DNA of 64,000 nucleotides from Flavobacterium hankyongi. Lineage in GTDB: Bacteria > Bacteroidota > Bacteroidia > Flavobacteriales > Flavobacteriaceae. Below the pieces are notes generated by a model that worked only from the letters and a program-made list of their open reading frames with translations, ran no database searches and was not told where the DNA came from. Shown one piece after another: positions 49,045 to 53,380 of the stretch; the first letter of the stretch is position 1; each line of letters begins with the position of its first letter. The stretch spans positions 496,001 through 560,000 of the forward strand of contig NZ_CP085725.1 in assembly GCF_036840915.1 (NCBI RefSeq), given 5' to 3'. A program made the position numbers and the translations under genes.

Positions 49045-50448
49045 CTAAACATGTAAAGCTCTTTTTCCGGTTGCATCAAGAGCTGCTTCTTTGATTGCTT
49101 CAGCAAATGTTGGGTGTGCGTGTGACATTCTTGAGATATCTTCTGCACTTGCACGGAATTCCATTGCTGTCACAGCTTCTGCAATTAAATCGGCAGCACG
49201 AGCTCCAATCATATGAATACCTAAAACTTCATCAGTAGCAGCATCTGCTAAAATTTTGATGAAACCATCATTATCAGCACTTGCACGAGCACGACCTAAA
49301 GCTTTGAATGGGAAACTACCTACTTTGTAATTTTTACCTTCAGCTTTTAATTGTTCTTCAGTTTTACCAACTGCAGAAACTTCTGGCCAAGTATAAACAA
49401 CTCCAGGAATTAAGTTATAATCGATGTGAGGTTTTTGACCTGCTAAATATTCAGCAATCAATACACCTTCTTCTTCTGCTTTGTGAGCTAACATTGCACC
49501 ACGTACAACATCACCAATTGCATAAATATTTGATACTGAAGTCTGTAAATGATCATTTACTTCAACTTGTCCTCTGTCAGTTAATTTAACACCAGCTTTT
49601 TCAGTATTTAAACCATCAGTATAAGGACGACGACCTACAGCTACTAAAGCATAATCCCCATCAAGAACAATCTCTTCTCCTTTAGCATTGTCTGCTTTTA
49701 CAACAACTGCATTTCCGTTGCGAGTAACTTCTTTTACTTTGTGAGAAGTATAGAATTTCATTCCTTGTTTTTTCAATACTTTAGTCAATTCTTTTGATAA
49801 AGCACCGTCCATTCCTGGAATAATTCTGTCCATGAACTCAACTACAGATACTTGTGCTCCTAAACGTAAATAAACTTGACCTAATTCTAAGCCAATAACT
49901 CCACCACCAATAATGATTAAGTGTTTAGGAACTTCTGGTAATTTTAAAGCTTCTGTAGAAGTAATAACTCTTTCTTTATCAATAGAGATGAATGGTAAAG
50001 AAGATGGTTTTGAACCAGTTGCAATGATTGTATTTTTAGCTTCAATTTTTTCTACAGAGCCATCAGCTTTTGTAATTGCTATTGAAGTAGCACTTTCAAA
50101 CGAACCAACACCATTAAAAACAGTGATATTATTTTTGTCCATTAAGAATTTTACTCCACCACTTGTTTGATCTACAACTGCTTGTTTGCGATCAATCATT
50201 TTTTGAAGATTTACTTTTACTTCTCCAGAAACTTCAATTCCGTGGTCTGCAAAATGTTGCAATTCTTCATAATGATGTGAAGAGGCTAATAATGCTTTTG
50301 AAGGAATACATCCTACATTCAAACATGTACCTCCAAGCGTTGAATATTTTTCAATAATGGCAGTTTTCATTCCTAATTGGGCACAACGAATCGCTGCTAC
50401 ATATCCGCCAGGACCTGAACCAATTACAACTACGTCAAATGAACTCAT
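49045..50448 (-). CDS. lpdA: dihydrolipoyl dehydrogenase (E3)
   Basis: This 467-residue FAD flavoprotein is the E3 subunit of the pyruvate and 2-oxoglutarate dehydrogenase complexes. It shows the FAD motif VVIGSGPGGYVAAIRCAQLG, the redox disulfide GGTCLNVGCIPSKALL, the NAD motif IIIGGGVIGLELGQVYLRLG and the C-terminal SHAHPTFAEAIKEA with the catalytic His-Glu pair. A TAATTTTG box lies about 37 bases upstream on the minus strand (50485-50492). It is a single gene here, without E1 or E2 neighbours. Confidence 0.96.
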   Translation of the reverse strand: MSSFDVVVIGSGPGGYVAAIRCAQLGMKTAIIEKYSTLGGTCLNVGCIPSKALLASSHHYEELQHFADHGIEVSGEVKVNLQKMIDRKQAVVDQTSGGVKFLMDKNNITVFNGVGSFESATSIAITKADGSVEKIEAKNTIIATGSKPSSLPFISIDKERVITSTEALKLPEVPKHLIIIGGGVIGLELGQVYLRLGAQVSVVEFMDRIIPGMDGALSKELTKVLKKQGMKFYTSHKVKEVTRNGNAVVVKADNAKGEEIVLDGDYALVAVGRRPYTDGLNTEKAGVKLTDRGQVEVNDHLQTSVSNIYAIGDVVRGAMLAHKAEEEGVLIAEYLAGQKPHIDYNLIPGVVYTWPEVSAVGKTEEQLKAEGKNYKVGSFPFKALGRARASADNDGFIKILADAATDEVLGIHMIGARAADLIAEAVTAMEFRASAEDISRMSHAHPTFAEAIKEAALDATGKRALHV

Positions 50449-50554
50449 AGTATATATTTTATGTTGTTTTTAAAAAATCAACTGCAAAATTAGTGAATTT
50501 TGTTTAGAAGGAATTGTCTTTTTGGAAAATATAGGTAGAAAGAAATTAAATAAA

Positions 50555-50580
50555 AAGCCCTGAAGAATTTCAGGGCTTAA
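50555..50580 (-). terminator. terminator behind the cysteine-rich peptide genes
   Basis: Read on the minus strand, AAGCCCTGAA pairs with TTCAGGGCTT around a short loop, followed by TTTTATTT. It begins 7 bases after the stop of the second peptide gene, supporting a short minus-strand transcript. Confidence 0.8.
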
Positions 50581-50586
50581 ATTTTA

Positions 50587-50778
50587 CTAAACTGCGTCGT
50601 TGCAAGTGTATACCTGAGGGCATCCAATGTAATCAGAGCAATACCATGGACCAGTTACAGCACCGCTACAAGAACAACCACAAAGTGATAAATCAATTTT
50701 AGCTTTACCATAGATTGTTTTTTGGCTTTCTTTTGATAATACCTCAGCCCCAGAAAGATTTAAAAGTTTTGATTTCAT
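50587..50778 (-). CDS. cysteine-rich peptide with conserved leader (RiPP/bacteriocin-like precursor), copy 1
   Basis: This 63-residue peptide starts MKSKLLNLSGAEVLSKESQK, a leader of the form LSKxxQKxI seen in bacteroidotal precursors, then TIYGKAK, where a Gly-Lys replaces the usual Gly-Gly cleavage site. The core has six Cys (residues 33, 35, 37, 47, 53, 59), beginning with CGCSC. Its leader and cysteine pattern match the peptide encoded just upstream (50805-50978), so they are paralogues in one operon with a 26-base gap. No modification enzyme or ABC transporter is near. The function is unknown: it may be an antimicrobial, a signal or a disulfide-rich exported peptide. Confidence 0.7.
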   Translation of the reverse strand: MKSKLLNLSGAEVLSKESQKTIYGKAKIDLSLCGCSCSGAVTGPWYCSDYIGCPQVYTCNDAV

Positions 50779-50804
50779 AATGATATAAATTAATGATTAT
50801 TAAA

Positions 50805-50978
50805 TTAAGAATCTTGTACTGAACATGGATCAATAAAACAAGGTGAACAATGCAGTGGAAGTGGTTTTCCGCAGGTACAATGACATTCTCCATCATTTGG
50901 AGCGCCTCCATTTATTGATTTTTGATTTTCTTTTGATAGTACTTCAACACCAATAATGTTTAAAAGTTTTGTTTTCAT
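50805..50978 (-). CDS. cysteine-rich peptide with GG leader (RiPP/bacteriocin-like precursor), copy 2
   Basis: This 57-residue peptide starts MKTKLLNIIGVEVLSKENQK and continues SINGGAPND, with a clear double-glycine at 24-25, the classic site for cleavage by a C39-type peptidase-transporter. The core has six Cys (32, 34, 36, 44, 47, 52), beginning with CHCTC. The leader differs from copy 1 at only six of the first 22 positions while the cores diverge, the normal signature of precursor paralogues. It is the first gene of the pair on the minus strand. A palindrome ATTACT-AA-AGTAAT lies about 30 bases upstream (51007-51020). Confidence 0.72.
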   Translation of the reverse strand: MKTKLLNIIGVEVLSKENQKSINGGAPNDGECHCTCGKPLPLHCSPCFIDPCSVQDS

Positions 50979-51006
50979 AATTTTTTAGTTTTGATTTAAA
51001 AATAAT

Positions 51007-51020
51007 ATTACTAAAGTAAT
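51007..51020. promoter_or_regulatory. palindrome ATTACT-AA-AGTAAT, possible operator of the peptide genes
   Basis: This perfect 6-bp inverted repeat stands 29 bases upstream of the ATG at 50978, where a repressor or activator could act. No -7 box of standard form is clear. In AT-rich DNA such a palindrome can occur by chance. Confidence 0.25.
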
Positions 51021-51208
51021 CTTTTACTTACAAATTGAAAAATAAAACTTTAATTTTTACTGTTTTAAAATTGAAAGCGAAAGCAATTTTAAGTTAAAAG
51101 GTCAAATTAAAATTAACATTTTGTATTTGTTGATACGTCAAATATTTTTTGAATTCCTTAACAGTTTCAATGTTATCATTTATTAAATTAGAGGCCAAAA
51201 CATAAATT

Positions 51209-53380
51209 ATGAAAAAATATATACTTAGTTTTTTATTAATAGGAAGCGTTTCATTTGCACAAAAGCTTACTATCGAAGAAACTGTTACTGGAGGAAGAAA
51301 ATACGCTCCAACTACTCAAGTAGCTCAACAATGGCGTAAGAATTCTAAATCGGTTGCTTATTTAAGTGCTGATTATGTTAATTTGTTAGAAAAAAGTGCT
51401 ACGAATGGATGGAAAGAAGCAACTTTGGCTACAAAATCTGATTTTGAAAATGCTTTAAAAGCAAAAATTACTTCAGATGAATTTTCAGTAAAAACTTTTC
51501 CAACTTCTATTGAGTGGAAGTCTACTAATGCATTTGAAACAGAGGTTTCAGGTAAAAAAAATAATTATAAGGTCATATTTGATGTTGTTTACAAACAAAT
51601 CACAAATGTAATTTCTTATTCAAATGAAGGAGAACAAGCAAAGTTTGCTAATAATGGAAATGTATCTTGGTTAAAAGAAAACAATATTAAAATTACTACT
51701 GCTTCGGGTAATGTTATAGATGTTACTAATGATACAGATAAAGGTATTGTGAATGGTTCTGATTATGTACACCGTCAGGAATTTGGTATCAAAGAAGGAA
51801 TGTGGTGGAATGAAGCTGGAACACAATTAGCGTATTACCGTAAAGATGAAACCATGGTTGCTAATTATCCTATAACCAATTGGAACGAACGCGAAGCAAT
51901 TAATAAGGATATCAAATATCCTATGGCTGGAATGACTAGCGAAAATGTAACTTTAGTGGTTTTTGATGTTGCTTCAGGAAAAAAAGTAACGATTCAAACC
52001 GGCGAGCCAAAAGAACAATACTTAACAATGGTTTCTTGGGAACCAACAGGAAAAAACATTTTCATCGGAATTTTAAATCGTGAACAGAATCATTTAAAAT
52101 TCAATAAGTATGATGCACAAACTGGTGCTTTTGTAAAAACATTATTTGAAGAAAAAGCATCAACTTGGGTTGAACCACAACATGCTTTAATATTTGTGCC
52201 AAATAATCCATCTCAATTTATTTATCAAACTGATTTTAATGGTTATAACCAAATGTATTTATACAATACTGATGGAAAACTATTGAAAAATTTAGGGTTT
52301 GGTGATGTAATTGTTAAAGATTTTTTAGGTTTTGATAACAGTGCTTCAAAAATCAACTACATAGGTACTGCTAACAATGGTTTAGACCGTCAGTTGTATC
52401 AAGTAGATTTAAAATCTGGAAAAACGATTCAGTTAACTTCGATTTCGGGAACGCATAATGCTTCAGTTTCTTCAGACGGAACTATGGTTTTAGATCAATA
52501 CAGTAATGTTACAACGCCAAATGAGATTTCAATTTTGAACATTAAAACAAAAATGGCGAACACAACTTTAGTTAAAGCTGATAATCCTTTTACTGGTAAA
52601 ATTGATATGCCAAAAATGGAATTGGTAACAATTACTTCAGCCGATGGGAAAACACCATTAAACGCACGTATTATCTATCCAGCAAATTTTGATGCTGCAA
52701 AAAAATATCCAGTAATGGTATATGTGTATGGAGGTTCACATGCTCAATTAGTGACTAACCGATGGTTAGGAGGAGCTGGTTATTTCGATTACTATATGGC
52801 ACAACAAGGTTATGTGGTTTTCACATTAGATAATAGAGGAAGTGATGCCCGTGGGAAAAAATTCTGTGATGTTAACCACCGTCAGTTGGGAGTAAACGAA
52901 ATGGCTGACCAAATGAAAGGTGTTGAATTTTTAAAATCTAAATCGTTTGTAGATCAGGATAAAATTGGAGTTTTTGGATGGAGCTTTGGAGGTTTTATGA
53001 CAACTACTTTAATGACTAATCAAACTGATACGTTTAAAGTTGGAGTAGCAGGTGGTCCAGTAATCGATTGGAAATATTACGAAATCATGTACGGTGAGCG
53101 TTATATGGATATGCCACAAGAAAATCCAGAAGGTTATGCAAAAGCTTCTTTATTGGATAAAGCTAAAAATCTAAAAGGACGTTTATTAATAATTCATGGA
53201 GCACAAGATCCTGTAGTAGTGCAACAAAACAGTATGAATTTTATCGAGTCTTGTATTAAAGCTGGTAAACAAGTTGATTATTTCTTGTATCCTAATCACG
53301 AACACAATGTAGCCGGTAGAGATCGTATTCATATGTATGCTAAAATTGCAGATTATTTTGATACATACTTGAAAAAATAA
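51209..53380 (+). CDS. exported S9 family prolyl peptidase (DPP IV type)
   Basis: This 723-residue enzyme has a signal peptide (KKYILSFLLIGSVSFAQ), a beta-propeller domain (about 40-470) and a C-terminal alpha/beta-hydrolase. The nucleophile is Ser592 in FGWSFGGFMTT, the Asp is Asp667 in GAQDPVV, and the His is in the NHEHNV segment (697-699). Residues VPNNPSQFIYQTDFNGYNQM in the propeller fit DPP IV relatives. Such enzymes remove dipeptides ending in proline or alanine in the periplasm or at the surface, for peptide nutrition. A split small gene follows three bases later. Confidence 0.93.
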   Translation: MKKYILSFLLIGSVSFAQKLTIEETVTGGRKYAPTTQVAQQWRKNSKSVAYLSADYVNLLEKSATNGWKEATLATKSDFENALKAKITSDEFSVKTFPTSIEWKSTNAFETEVSGKKNNYKVIFDVVYKQITNVISYSNEGEQAKFANNGNVSWLKENNIKITTASGNVIDVTNDTDKGIVNGSDYVHRQEFGIKEGMWWNEAGTQLAYYRKDETMVANYPITNWNEREAINKDIKYPMAGMTSENVTLVVFDVASGKKVTIQTGEPKEQYLTMVSWEPTGKNIFIGILNREQNHLKFNKYDAQTGAFVKTLFEEKASTWVEPQHALIFVPNNPSQFIYQTDFNGYNQMYLYNTDGKLLKNLGFGDVIVKDFLGFDNSASKINYIGTANNGLDRQLYQVDLKSGKTIQLTSISGTHNASVSSDGTMVLDQYSNVTTPNEISILNIKTKMANTTLVKADNPFTGKIDMPKMELVTITSADGKTPLNARIIYPANFDAAKKYPVMVYVYGGSHAQLVTNRWLGGAGYFDYYMAQQGYVVFTLDNRGSDARGKKFCDVNHRQLGVNEMADQMKGVEFLKSKSFVDQDKIGVFGWSFGGFMTTTLMTNQTDTFKVGVAGGPVIDWKYYEIMYGERYMDMPQENPEGYAKASLLDKAKNLKGRLLIIHGAQDPVVVQQNSMNFIESCIKAGKQVDYFLYPNHEHNVAGRDRIHMYAKIADYFDTYLKK

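What the first reader, a model, noticed from the sequence alone, without database searches (positions are those of the whole stretch)
50587..50978. Orphan pair of six-cysteine leader peptides (RiPP/bacteriocin-like)
Two adjacent minus-strand ORFs of 63 and 57 codons share a leader (MK(S/T)KLLN..G.EVLSKE.QK.I) and six Cys in the same order, starting CxCxC, while the rest of the cores differ. Copy 2 has a perfect Gly-Gly site; copy 1 has Gly-Lys. They have their own terminator. No lanthionine synthetase, radical SAM enzyme, C39 transporter or immunity gene is visible, so the maturation system must be elsewhere, or these are unmodified disulfide-rich peptides. The leader type is established for bacteroidotal GG-leader precursors; the specific peptide class is inference.
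Basis: partly seen in the sequence, partly recalled or inferred. Interest (0 to 1): 0.75.

Follow-up and report, generated by a model that had tools for sequence, protein, structure and literature searches.

The report
Orphan peptides with remote oxidase partner
Two neighbouring small genes in a Flavobacterium-type chromosome encode cysteine-rich peptides of two conserved families with no export gene found nearby, and they are likely cut, exported and predicted to be cross-linked by disulfides by a transporter-and-oxidase gene set that lies 1.7 million bases away in the same genome.

Summary
In detail: two minus-strand ORFs, A (50805-50978, 57 aa, Gly-Gly) and B (50587-50778, 63 aa, Gly-Lys), share a leader, have six Cys each and their own terminator. 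Both are real families: A has 8 homologues, B 163 hits. B's core is more conserved than its leader, the reverse of the usual bacteriocin pattern, and keeps its chromosomal place: beside lpdA in 10 of 10 same-genus loci, beside an MFS gene in 25 of 25 loci of a second genus. The machinery is elsewhere: the genome's only intact C39 ABC exporter, with HlyD, more Gly-Gly Cys peptides and a ~520-aa fusion of degenerate C39-like domain, VKOR oxidase and thioredoxin. All 37 B-positive genomes examined carry exporter and VKOR, side by side in 34. Precursors beside such cassettes usually have even Cys numbers (82 of 85). Exported disulfide-bonded, bacteriocin-like peptides matured in trans is the best reading; trans-processing, disulfides and activity are inferred. 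Lanthionine or radical-SAM modification is poorly supported. Against: B lies mostly in one clade of its genus, leader matching fails in one of three genera, and Gly-Lys/Gly-Gln sites are atypical for C39 peptidases.

The parts
50805..50978 (-). ORF A, 57-aa precursor, six Cys, Gly-Gly site
   Evidence: 8 homologues; alignment
50904..50978 (-). leader of A (residues 1-25), Leu-12 and Ile-4 before the site
   Evidence: translation; C39 recognition positions from PMC6363468; cleavage point inferred
50808..50903 (-). predicted mature core of A (32 aa)
   Evidence: translation; CHCxCGKP...CSPCFIDPC kept in homologues
50587..50778 (-). ORF B, 63-aa precursor, six Cys, Gly-Lys at the site
   Evidence: 163 hits; Cys spacing fixed in 116 of 120
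50704..50778 (-). leader of B (residues 1-25)
   Evidence: translation; scores best with same-genus cassette leaders; cleavage point inferred
50590..50703 (-). predicted mature core of B (38 aa)
   Evidence: translation; per-column conservation
50555..50578 (-). intrinsic terminator after B
   Evidence: 10-pair stem and T run, fold z -4.5; like sequence in G098
51014..51029 (-). AAGTAA-AAGA-TTACTT inverted repeat upstream of A, nearly the same in G098; role unknown
   Evidence: read
49045..50448 (-). lpdA-type gene (dihydrolipoyl dehydrogenase-like), the fixed neighbour of B in this genus; context, not part of the pathway
   Evidence: beside B in 10 of 10 other loci examined

Best explanation
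Genes A and B encode leader-bearing six-cysteine peptides that are likely cut and exported by the genome's only intact C39-peptidase ABC transporter, encoded 1.7 Mb away, and are predicted to receive three disulfide bonds from a fused C39-like/VKOR/thioredoxin oxidase encoded with it. Steps: (1) the leader, with Leu-12 and Ile-4, would dock in the C39 groove; (2) the transporter would cut after Gly-Gly (A) or Gly-Lys (B) and export the core, HlyD acting as adaptor; (3) the VKOR module would pass disulfides through the thioredoxin module to the peptide, and the degenerate C39-like domain could hold the leader; (4) the folded peptide would act outside as a bacteriocin-like antagonist. Shown: the genes, the families, leader type, core conservation, the cassette and its catalytic motifs. 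Inferred: processing in trans, disulfides, secretion. Least certain: the activity.
For: One intact C39 exporter in the genome by PF03412, beside HlyD, three Gly-Gly Cys peptides with the same leader type and a VKOR fusion. All 37 B-positive genomes have exporter and VKOR, adjacent in 34. B lies inside VKOR-positive genomes in 8 of 8 (genus) and 30 of 30 (order), and by genus in 3 of 3, p 5e-4. B leaders fit the cassette leaders of their own genus in 10 of 10 and 21 of 22 loci. 49 of 49 fusions have exactly two CxxC motifs. Core Cys counts beside cassettes are even in 82 of 85 precursors. B residues 31-50 model at pLDDT 88-91. Precedent: bacteroidetocins.
Against: No expression, mass or activity data. 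The lpdA tree puts the 7 B-positive genomes among the 30 nearest in one weakly supported clade of 9, so the same-genus co-occurrence is not independent. Leader fit fails in 2 of 2 g2 loci. Gly-Lys is not a described C39 site, and 46 of 120 B homologues have Gln, Glu or Lys there. Position -7 is Gln here where C39 prefers Leu. Three precursors beside cassettes have odd Cys counts, one of them beside this genome's second fusion. The C39-like match of the fusion is below Pfam's cut-off in two of four tested and absent in one.
Confidence: 0.58

Rival explanations
1. The peptides are enzyme-modified RiPPs: LanB/LanC of the cassette locus, or a radical-SAM enzyme, modifies them in trans before export.
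For: The genome has LanB, LanC and a class I lanthipeptide precursor between exporter and fusion and one SPASM match; 15 of 41 B homologues match TIGR04149 at E up to 0.1.
Against: A's homologues keep one core Ser (S45) and no invariant Thr beside six Cys; B swaps Ser for Asp or Ala at two positions; LanB in 1 of 36 regions of other B-positive genomes, partial; SPASM in 3 of 10 same-genus B-positive genomes; TIGR04149 scores seen are below cut-off.
Confidence: 0.1
2. Exported disulfide-rich peptides with a signalling or housekeeping role rather than a killing one.
For: B's core is fixed across genera and its place fixed within genera; stronger constraint on core than leader; no local immunity gene recognised among the ORFs listed.
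Against: Bacteroidetocins also lack an immunity gene and have related cores; no receptor or regulator is linked in all genera.
Confidence: 0.25
3. Metal-binding Cys/His peptides, kept reduced, rather than disulfide peptides.
For: CHCxCG...C..C in A; a non-significant profile match of B to a zinc-binding protein chain (E 0.23).
Against: Leader type and VKOR link point to export and oxidation; A's His is absent from B; no MNIO enzyme in the genome.
Confidence: 0.07

Closest known systems
Bacteroidetocins (PMC6671954; passages and section 7 seen)
   Same: Bacteroidota peptides with a Gly-Gly leader, even Cys number, a thiol oxidoreductase and a C39 exporter, no immunity gene
   Different: There the four genes are together and cores have four Cys; here precursors are far from the machinery and have six Cys. 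Whether that thiol oxidoreductase is related to the VKOR fusion was not tested
NCBIfam NF047798 leader_Chryseo, 'bacteriocin-like protein'
   Same: Leader motif; weak match of A (15.5 bits) and of 8 of 41 B homologues at E up to 0.1
   Different: A is below the 23.5-bit cut-off and B gives no match; the model covers 18 leader positions and says nothing of the core
TIGR04149, rSAM-modified Gly-Gly precursors of Bacteroidota
   Same: Leader resemblance in 15 of 41 B homologues
   Different: Window B gives no match; the two scores seen are below cut-off; no consistent SPASM protein
VKOR/thioredoxin disulfide-forming enzymes
   Same: VKOR domain with CxxC and thioredoxin-type CxxC in one chain
   Different: Extra N-terminal C39-like domain without catalytic residues, and placement among leader-bearing precursors

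Membership tests
C39-exported Gly-Gly-leader peptides | Leader with hydrophobic -4 and Leu -12 (and -7) | tested here: inconclusive
   Leu-12 and Ile-4 present in A and B; -7 is Gln. In 120 B homologues: Leu-12 in 115, Ile or Val -4 in 117, -7 Gln 66 / Leu 54 (rule from PMC6363468)
C39-exported Gly-Gly-leader peptides | Gly-Gly, Gly-Ala or Gly-Ser before the cleavage point | tested here: inconclusive
   A: Gly-Gly, met. B: Gly-Lys, not met; B homologues 74 of 120 meet it (GG 58, GS 13, GA 3)
C39-exported Gly-Gly-leader peptides | C39-peptidase exporter in the genome | tested here: met
   One intact in this genome; 37 of 37 B-positive genomes
Bacteroidetocins | Exporter, oxidoreductase and five-TM gene next to the peptide gene | tested here: not met
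   Neighbours of A/B are lpdA and a peptidase-like gene; no C39 or VKOR in the window
Bacteroidetocins | Antibacterial activity | not testable with these tools
   needs peptide and target strains
Lanthipeptides (class I) | Ser/Thr partners for the core Cys and a LanB linked to the peptide | tested here: not met
   Too few conserved Ser/Thr for six Cys; LanB/LanC exist 1.7 Mb away but LanB is not general beside these cassettes
TIGR04149 rSAM-modified RiPPs | Score over the NCBIfam cut-off | tested here: not met
   No match for window B; 19.5 and 16.8 bits against 25 for two homologues
NF047798 leader_Chryseo | Score over the NCBIfam cut-off | tested here: not met
   A 15.5 against 23.5 bits; B none

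The most novel reading that the evidence does not exclude
The C39-like/VKOR/thioredoxin fusion is a leader-guided disulfide installer: its dead peptidase domain reads Gly-Gly-type leaders, so that one oxidase serves many precursors scattered over the chromosome, including the orphan families A and B, whose leaders drift with the host's cassette while their cores stay fixed across genera.
Probability: 0.32. Interest if true: 0.8.

Novelty: new variant of a known kind. Interest (0 to 1): 0.56.

Why it matters
It ties unnamed peptide families of several Flavobacteriales genera (annotated hypothetical, natural product or bacteriocin) to a candidate maturation system that cluster-based genome mining would miss, because precursors and enzymes lie far apart. 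It proposes a testable new job for a dead C39 domain: bringing an oxidase to leader-bearing peptides. A core fixed across genera suggests a conserved target or partner.

Tried and rejected
Lanthipeptide and radical-SAM readings were tested and disfavoured. MNIO-type modification: no enzyme in this genome. Structured RNA: no Rfam match in 50300-51300. Plasmid origin: no plasmid match for B. Fold of B: no Foldseek match in the PDB, none significant by sequence; the A model is too poor to search (mean pLDDT 54.9). Pfam: nothing usable. A modifier beside B in relatives: the recurring neighbours are lpdA, an Lrp-type regulator and others in Flavobacterium, MFS and other genes in g25. A sigma-70 promoter scan gave fewer sites than shuffles.

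Mended on the way: the first count of site dipeptides was off by one for Gly-Gly and is replaced by the alignment count. The first parse of B leaders took 30 of 37 loci and misplaced one site; one search repeats it with 34 of 37, three of them (L066, L077, L078) read from a second B copy nearby. The genus-level co-occurrence (p 6e-5) lost weight when the lpdA tree showed one main clade. A recount added the odd-Cys peptides that the first parity count had left out.

Full report
WHAT IS THERE. A (50978-50805) is followed after 26 bases by B (50778-50587), a terminator (fold z -4.5) and, on the same strand, an lpdA-type gene. They share the leader type over 25 residues and have six Cys each. At the curated cut-offs Pfam and NCBIfam name neither; A reaches 15.5 of 23.5 bits for 'leader_Chryseo'.

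BOTH ARE FAMILIES. A has 8 homologues with the core CHCxCGKPxPxxCSPCFIDPC. B has 163 hits at E up to 1, own protein included; the 120 listed reach 1.8e-17 and are, where named, Flavobacterium, Aquimarina, Tenacibaculum, Kordia and Chryseobacterium. Cys spacing is 2-2-10-6-6 in 116 of 120. In an alignment of the 120, C33, G34, C35, C37, V41, G43, C53 and C59 never vary, nor does leader G24; the residue after G24 is Gly 58, Gln 39, Ser 13, Glu 4, Lys 3, Ala 3. The word-based search favours members with a conserved core, so part of the contrast between leader and core may come from it. Among ten loci of the same genus (45 pairs) pN/pS is 0.20 in the core and 0.45 in the leader.

PLACE. In 10 of 10 same-genus loci examined, F. 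endophyticum (L017) among them, B sits beside lpdA; in 25 of 25 loci of a second genus (g25) it sits beside an MFS gene; the two g2 loci have neither. G098 has the A-B pair with a similar upstream stretch and terminator. By score, clear A hits occur in G000 and G098 only, of 199 genus genomes. No plasmid record matches B.

THE MACHINERY ELSEWHERE. In this one-contig genome PF03412 finds three places: a 730-aa exporter with peptidase, membrane and ATPase domains at C1:2255382, and two ~520-aa proteins. These two have a VKOR domain and a C-terminal thioredoxin-type CxxC; the C39-like match is 17.6 and 19.7 bits, below the cut-off of 22 (in the genome search the second reaches 22.4). Two relatives tested gave 28.0 bits (L020) and no C39 match (L019). 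Around the exporter lie HlyD, a hydrolase, LanB, LanC, a precursor over the NF038158 class I lanthipeptide cut-off, three Gly-Gly Cys peptides and one fusion. The second fusion stands beside a 78-aa Gly-Gly peptide with seven Cys. Two further orphan precursors of this type lie near C1:833,500 and C1:2,972,300, and one copy in the cluster has an in-frame stop. So one intact exporter faces precursors at several places; that it serves them all is inference.

CASSETTE IN RELATIVES. I fetched fusion regions from the 36 other B-positive genomes plus three more; with L012, L016, L019 and L020 that is 43 loci. Fusion and exporter are on one strand in 37 of 43, gap -10 to 6917 bases. Of the other six, three are second copies (L016, L118, L119), two end at a contig edge (L102, L111), and in one (L089, G378) no exporter lies in the 17 kb fetched. 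Counted by B-positive genome, 34 of 37 are adjacent. All 49 fusions have exactly two CxxC; the column of the catalytic Cys holds Cys in 1 of 49, that of the catalytic His never holds His, that of the Asp holds Asp in 7 of 49; 36 of 36 exporters keep all three.

CYSTEINE PARITY. In 41 loci (L012, L016, L081-L119) a leader pattern found 71 precursors in 27 loci; 66 have two or more core Cys and 65 of these an even number. L019 and L020, left out there, add 17 even of 18; the 78-aa peptide of L016, missed by the pattern, has seven Cys; in all 82 of 85 are even. These are related peptides chosen by a pattern, so the binomial p (2e-18 for 65 of 66) is only indicative.

LINK BETWEEN B AND THE CASSETTE. 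Exporter and VKOR are present in 37 of 37 B-positive genomes. Genus sample: B in 8 of 199, VKOR in 61 of 199 (60 over the cut-off), all 8 inside, p 6e-5. Order sample: B in 30 of 296, VKOR in 49 of 296 (48 over the cut-off), all 30 inside, but 25 of the 30 are one genus; by genus B 3 of 91, VKOR 8 of 91, all 3 inside, p 5e-4. Exporter frequency in B-negative genomes was not measured. Among the 30 nearest genomes by lpdA, B is in 7 of 13 with VKOR and 0 of 17 without, p 8e-4. The tree of 29 puts the 7 in one clade of 9 (support 69); the other two lack B, one with VKOR and one without. B leaders, scored with profiles made from cassette precursors only, fit their own genus in 10 of 10 Flavobacterium and 21 of 22 g25 loci but 0 of 2 in g2, which fit the Flavobacterium profile. 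So similar cores ride on lineage-specific leaders.

WHY DISULFIDES. Mostly even Cys counts, an oxidase with two CxxC modules beside such precursors, and a B model with pLDDT 88-91 at residues 31-50 and 75 at 51-60 fit three disulfides; the PDB holds no similar fold by Foldseek, and A's model is poor. Lanthionines would need Ser/Thr partners that A largely lacks and B replaces. Bacteroidetocins are the precedent: Gly-Gly leader, four Cys, thiol oxidoreductase, C39 exporter, no immunity gene (PMC6671954).

WEAK POINTS. PMC6363468 (passages) gives Gly-Gly, Gly-Ala and Gly-Ser as C39 sites and positions -4, -7 and -12 as the contacts; B has Gly-Lys, and both peptides have Gln at -7. Either this exporter tolerates that, or another protease cuts. 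The activity is a guess by analogy.

LITERATURE. Eight searches of the held library listed no paper that I recognised as describing a VKOR fusion with leader-bearing precursors; lists were capped and I saw titles and abstract starts. In PMC4555120 the words C39, peptidase, bacteriocin and Bacteroidetes do not occur. PMC13289728 was seen in passages. Databases call fusion homologues 'vitamin K epoxide reductase family protein', 'hypothetical protein', 'thioredoxin' or 'uncharacterized membrane protein'.

VERDICT. A true observation with a half-right reading: disulfide-type leader peptides, orphaned from their likely machinery and with fixed cores.

Noticed in passing
L012:8895-13414 (G000:C1:2256894-2261413): LanB, LanC and a 67-aa class I lanthipeptide precursor sit inside the cassette between exporter and Gly-Gly Cys peptides; one exporter may serve two chemistries.
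   Followed up: partly
L016:6909-8799 (G000:C1:1820908-1822798): Second VKOR fusion beside a 78-aa Gly-Gly peptide with seven Cys and near a TlpA-like thioredoxin protein, with no exporter in the 16 kb fetched.
   Followed up: partly
L081:8104-8304, L081:12523-12747, L084:7871-8137, L089:9582-9842: Cys-free peptides rich in Gly, Pro, Thr or Asp with a different Gly-Gly-like leader beside fusions.
   Followed up: no
L056-L080: B is linked to an MFS transporter gene in 25 of 25 loci of genus g25; some of these genomes have a second B copy nearby.
   Followed up: no
window 51014-51029: AAGTAA-AAGA-TTACTT inverted repeat upstream of A, one mismatch in G098; possible operator.
   Followed up: no
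L020:5777-10242: Flavobacterium sp. KMS has 15 leader-bearing Cys precursors in a row between fusion and exporter, all with four or six core Cys.
   Followed up: no
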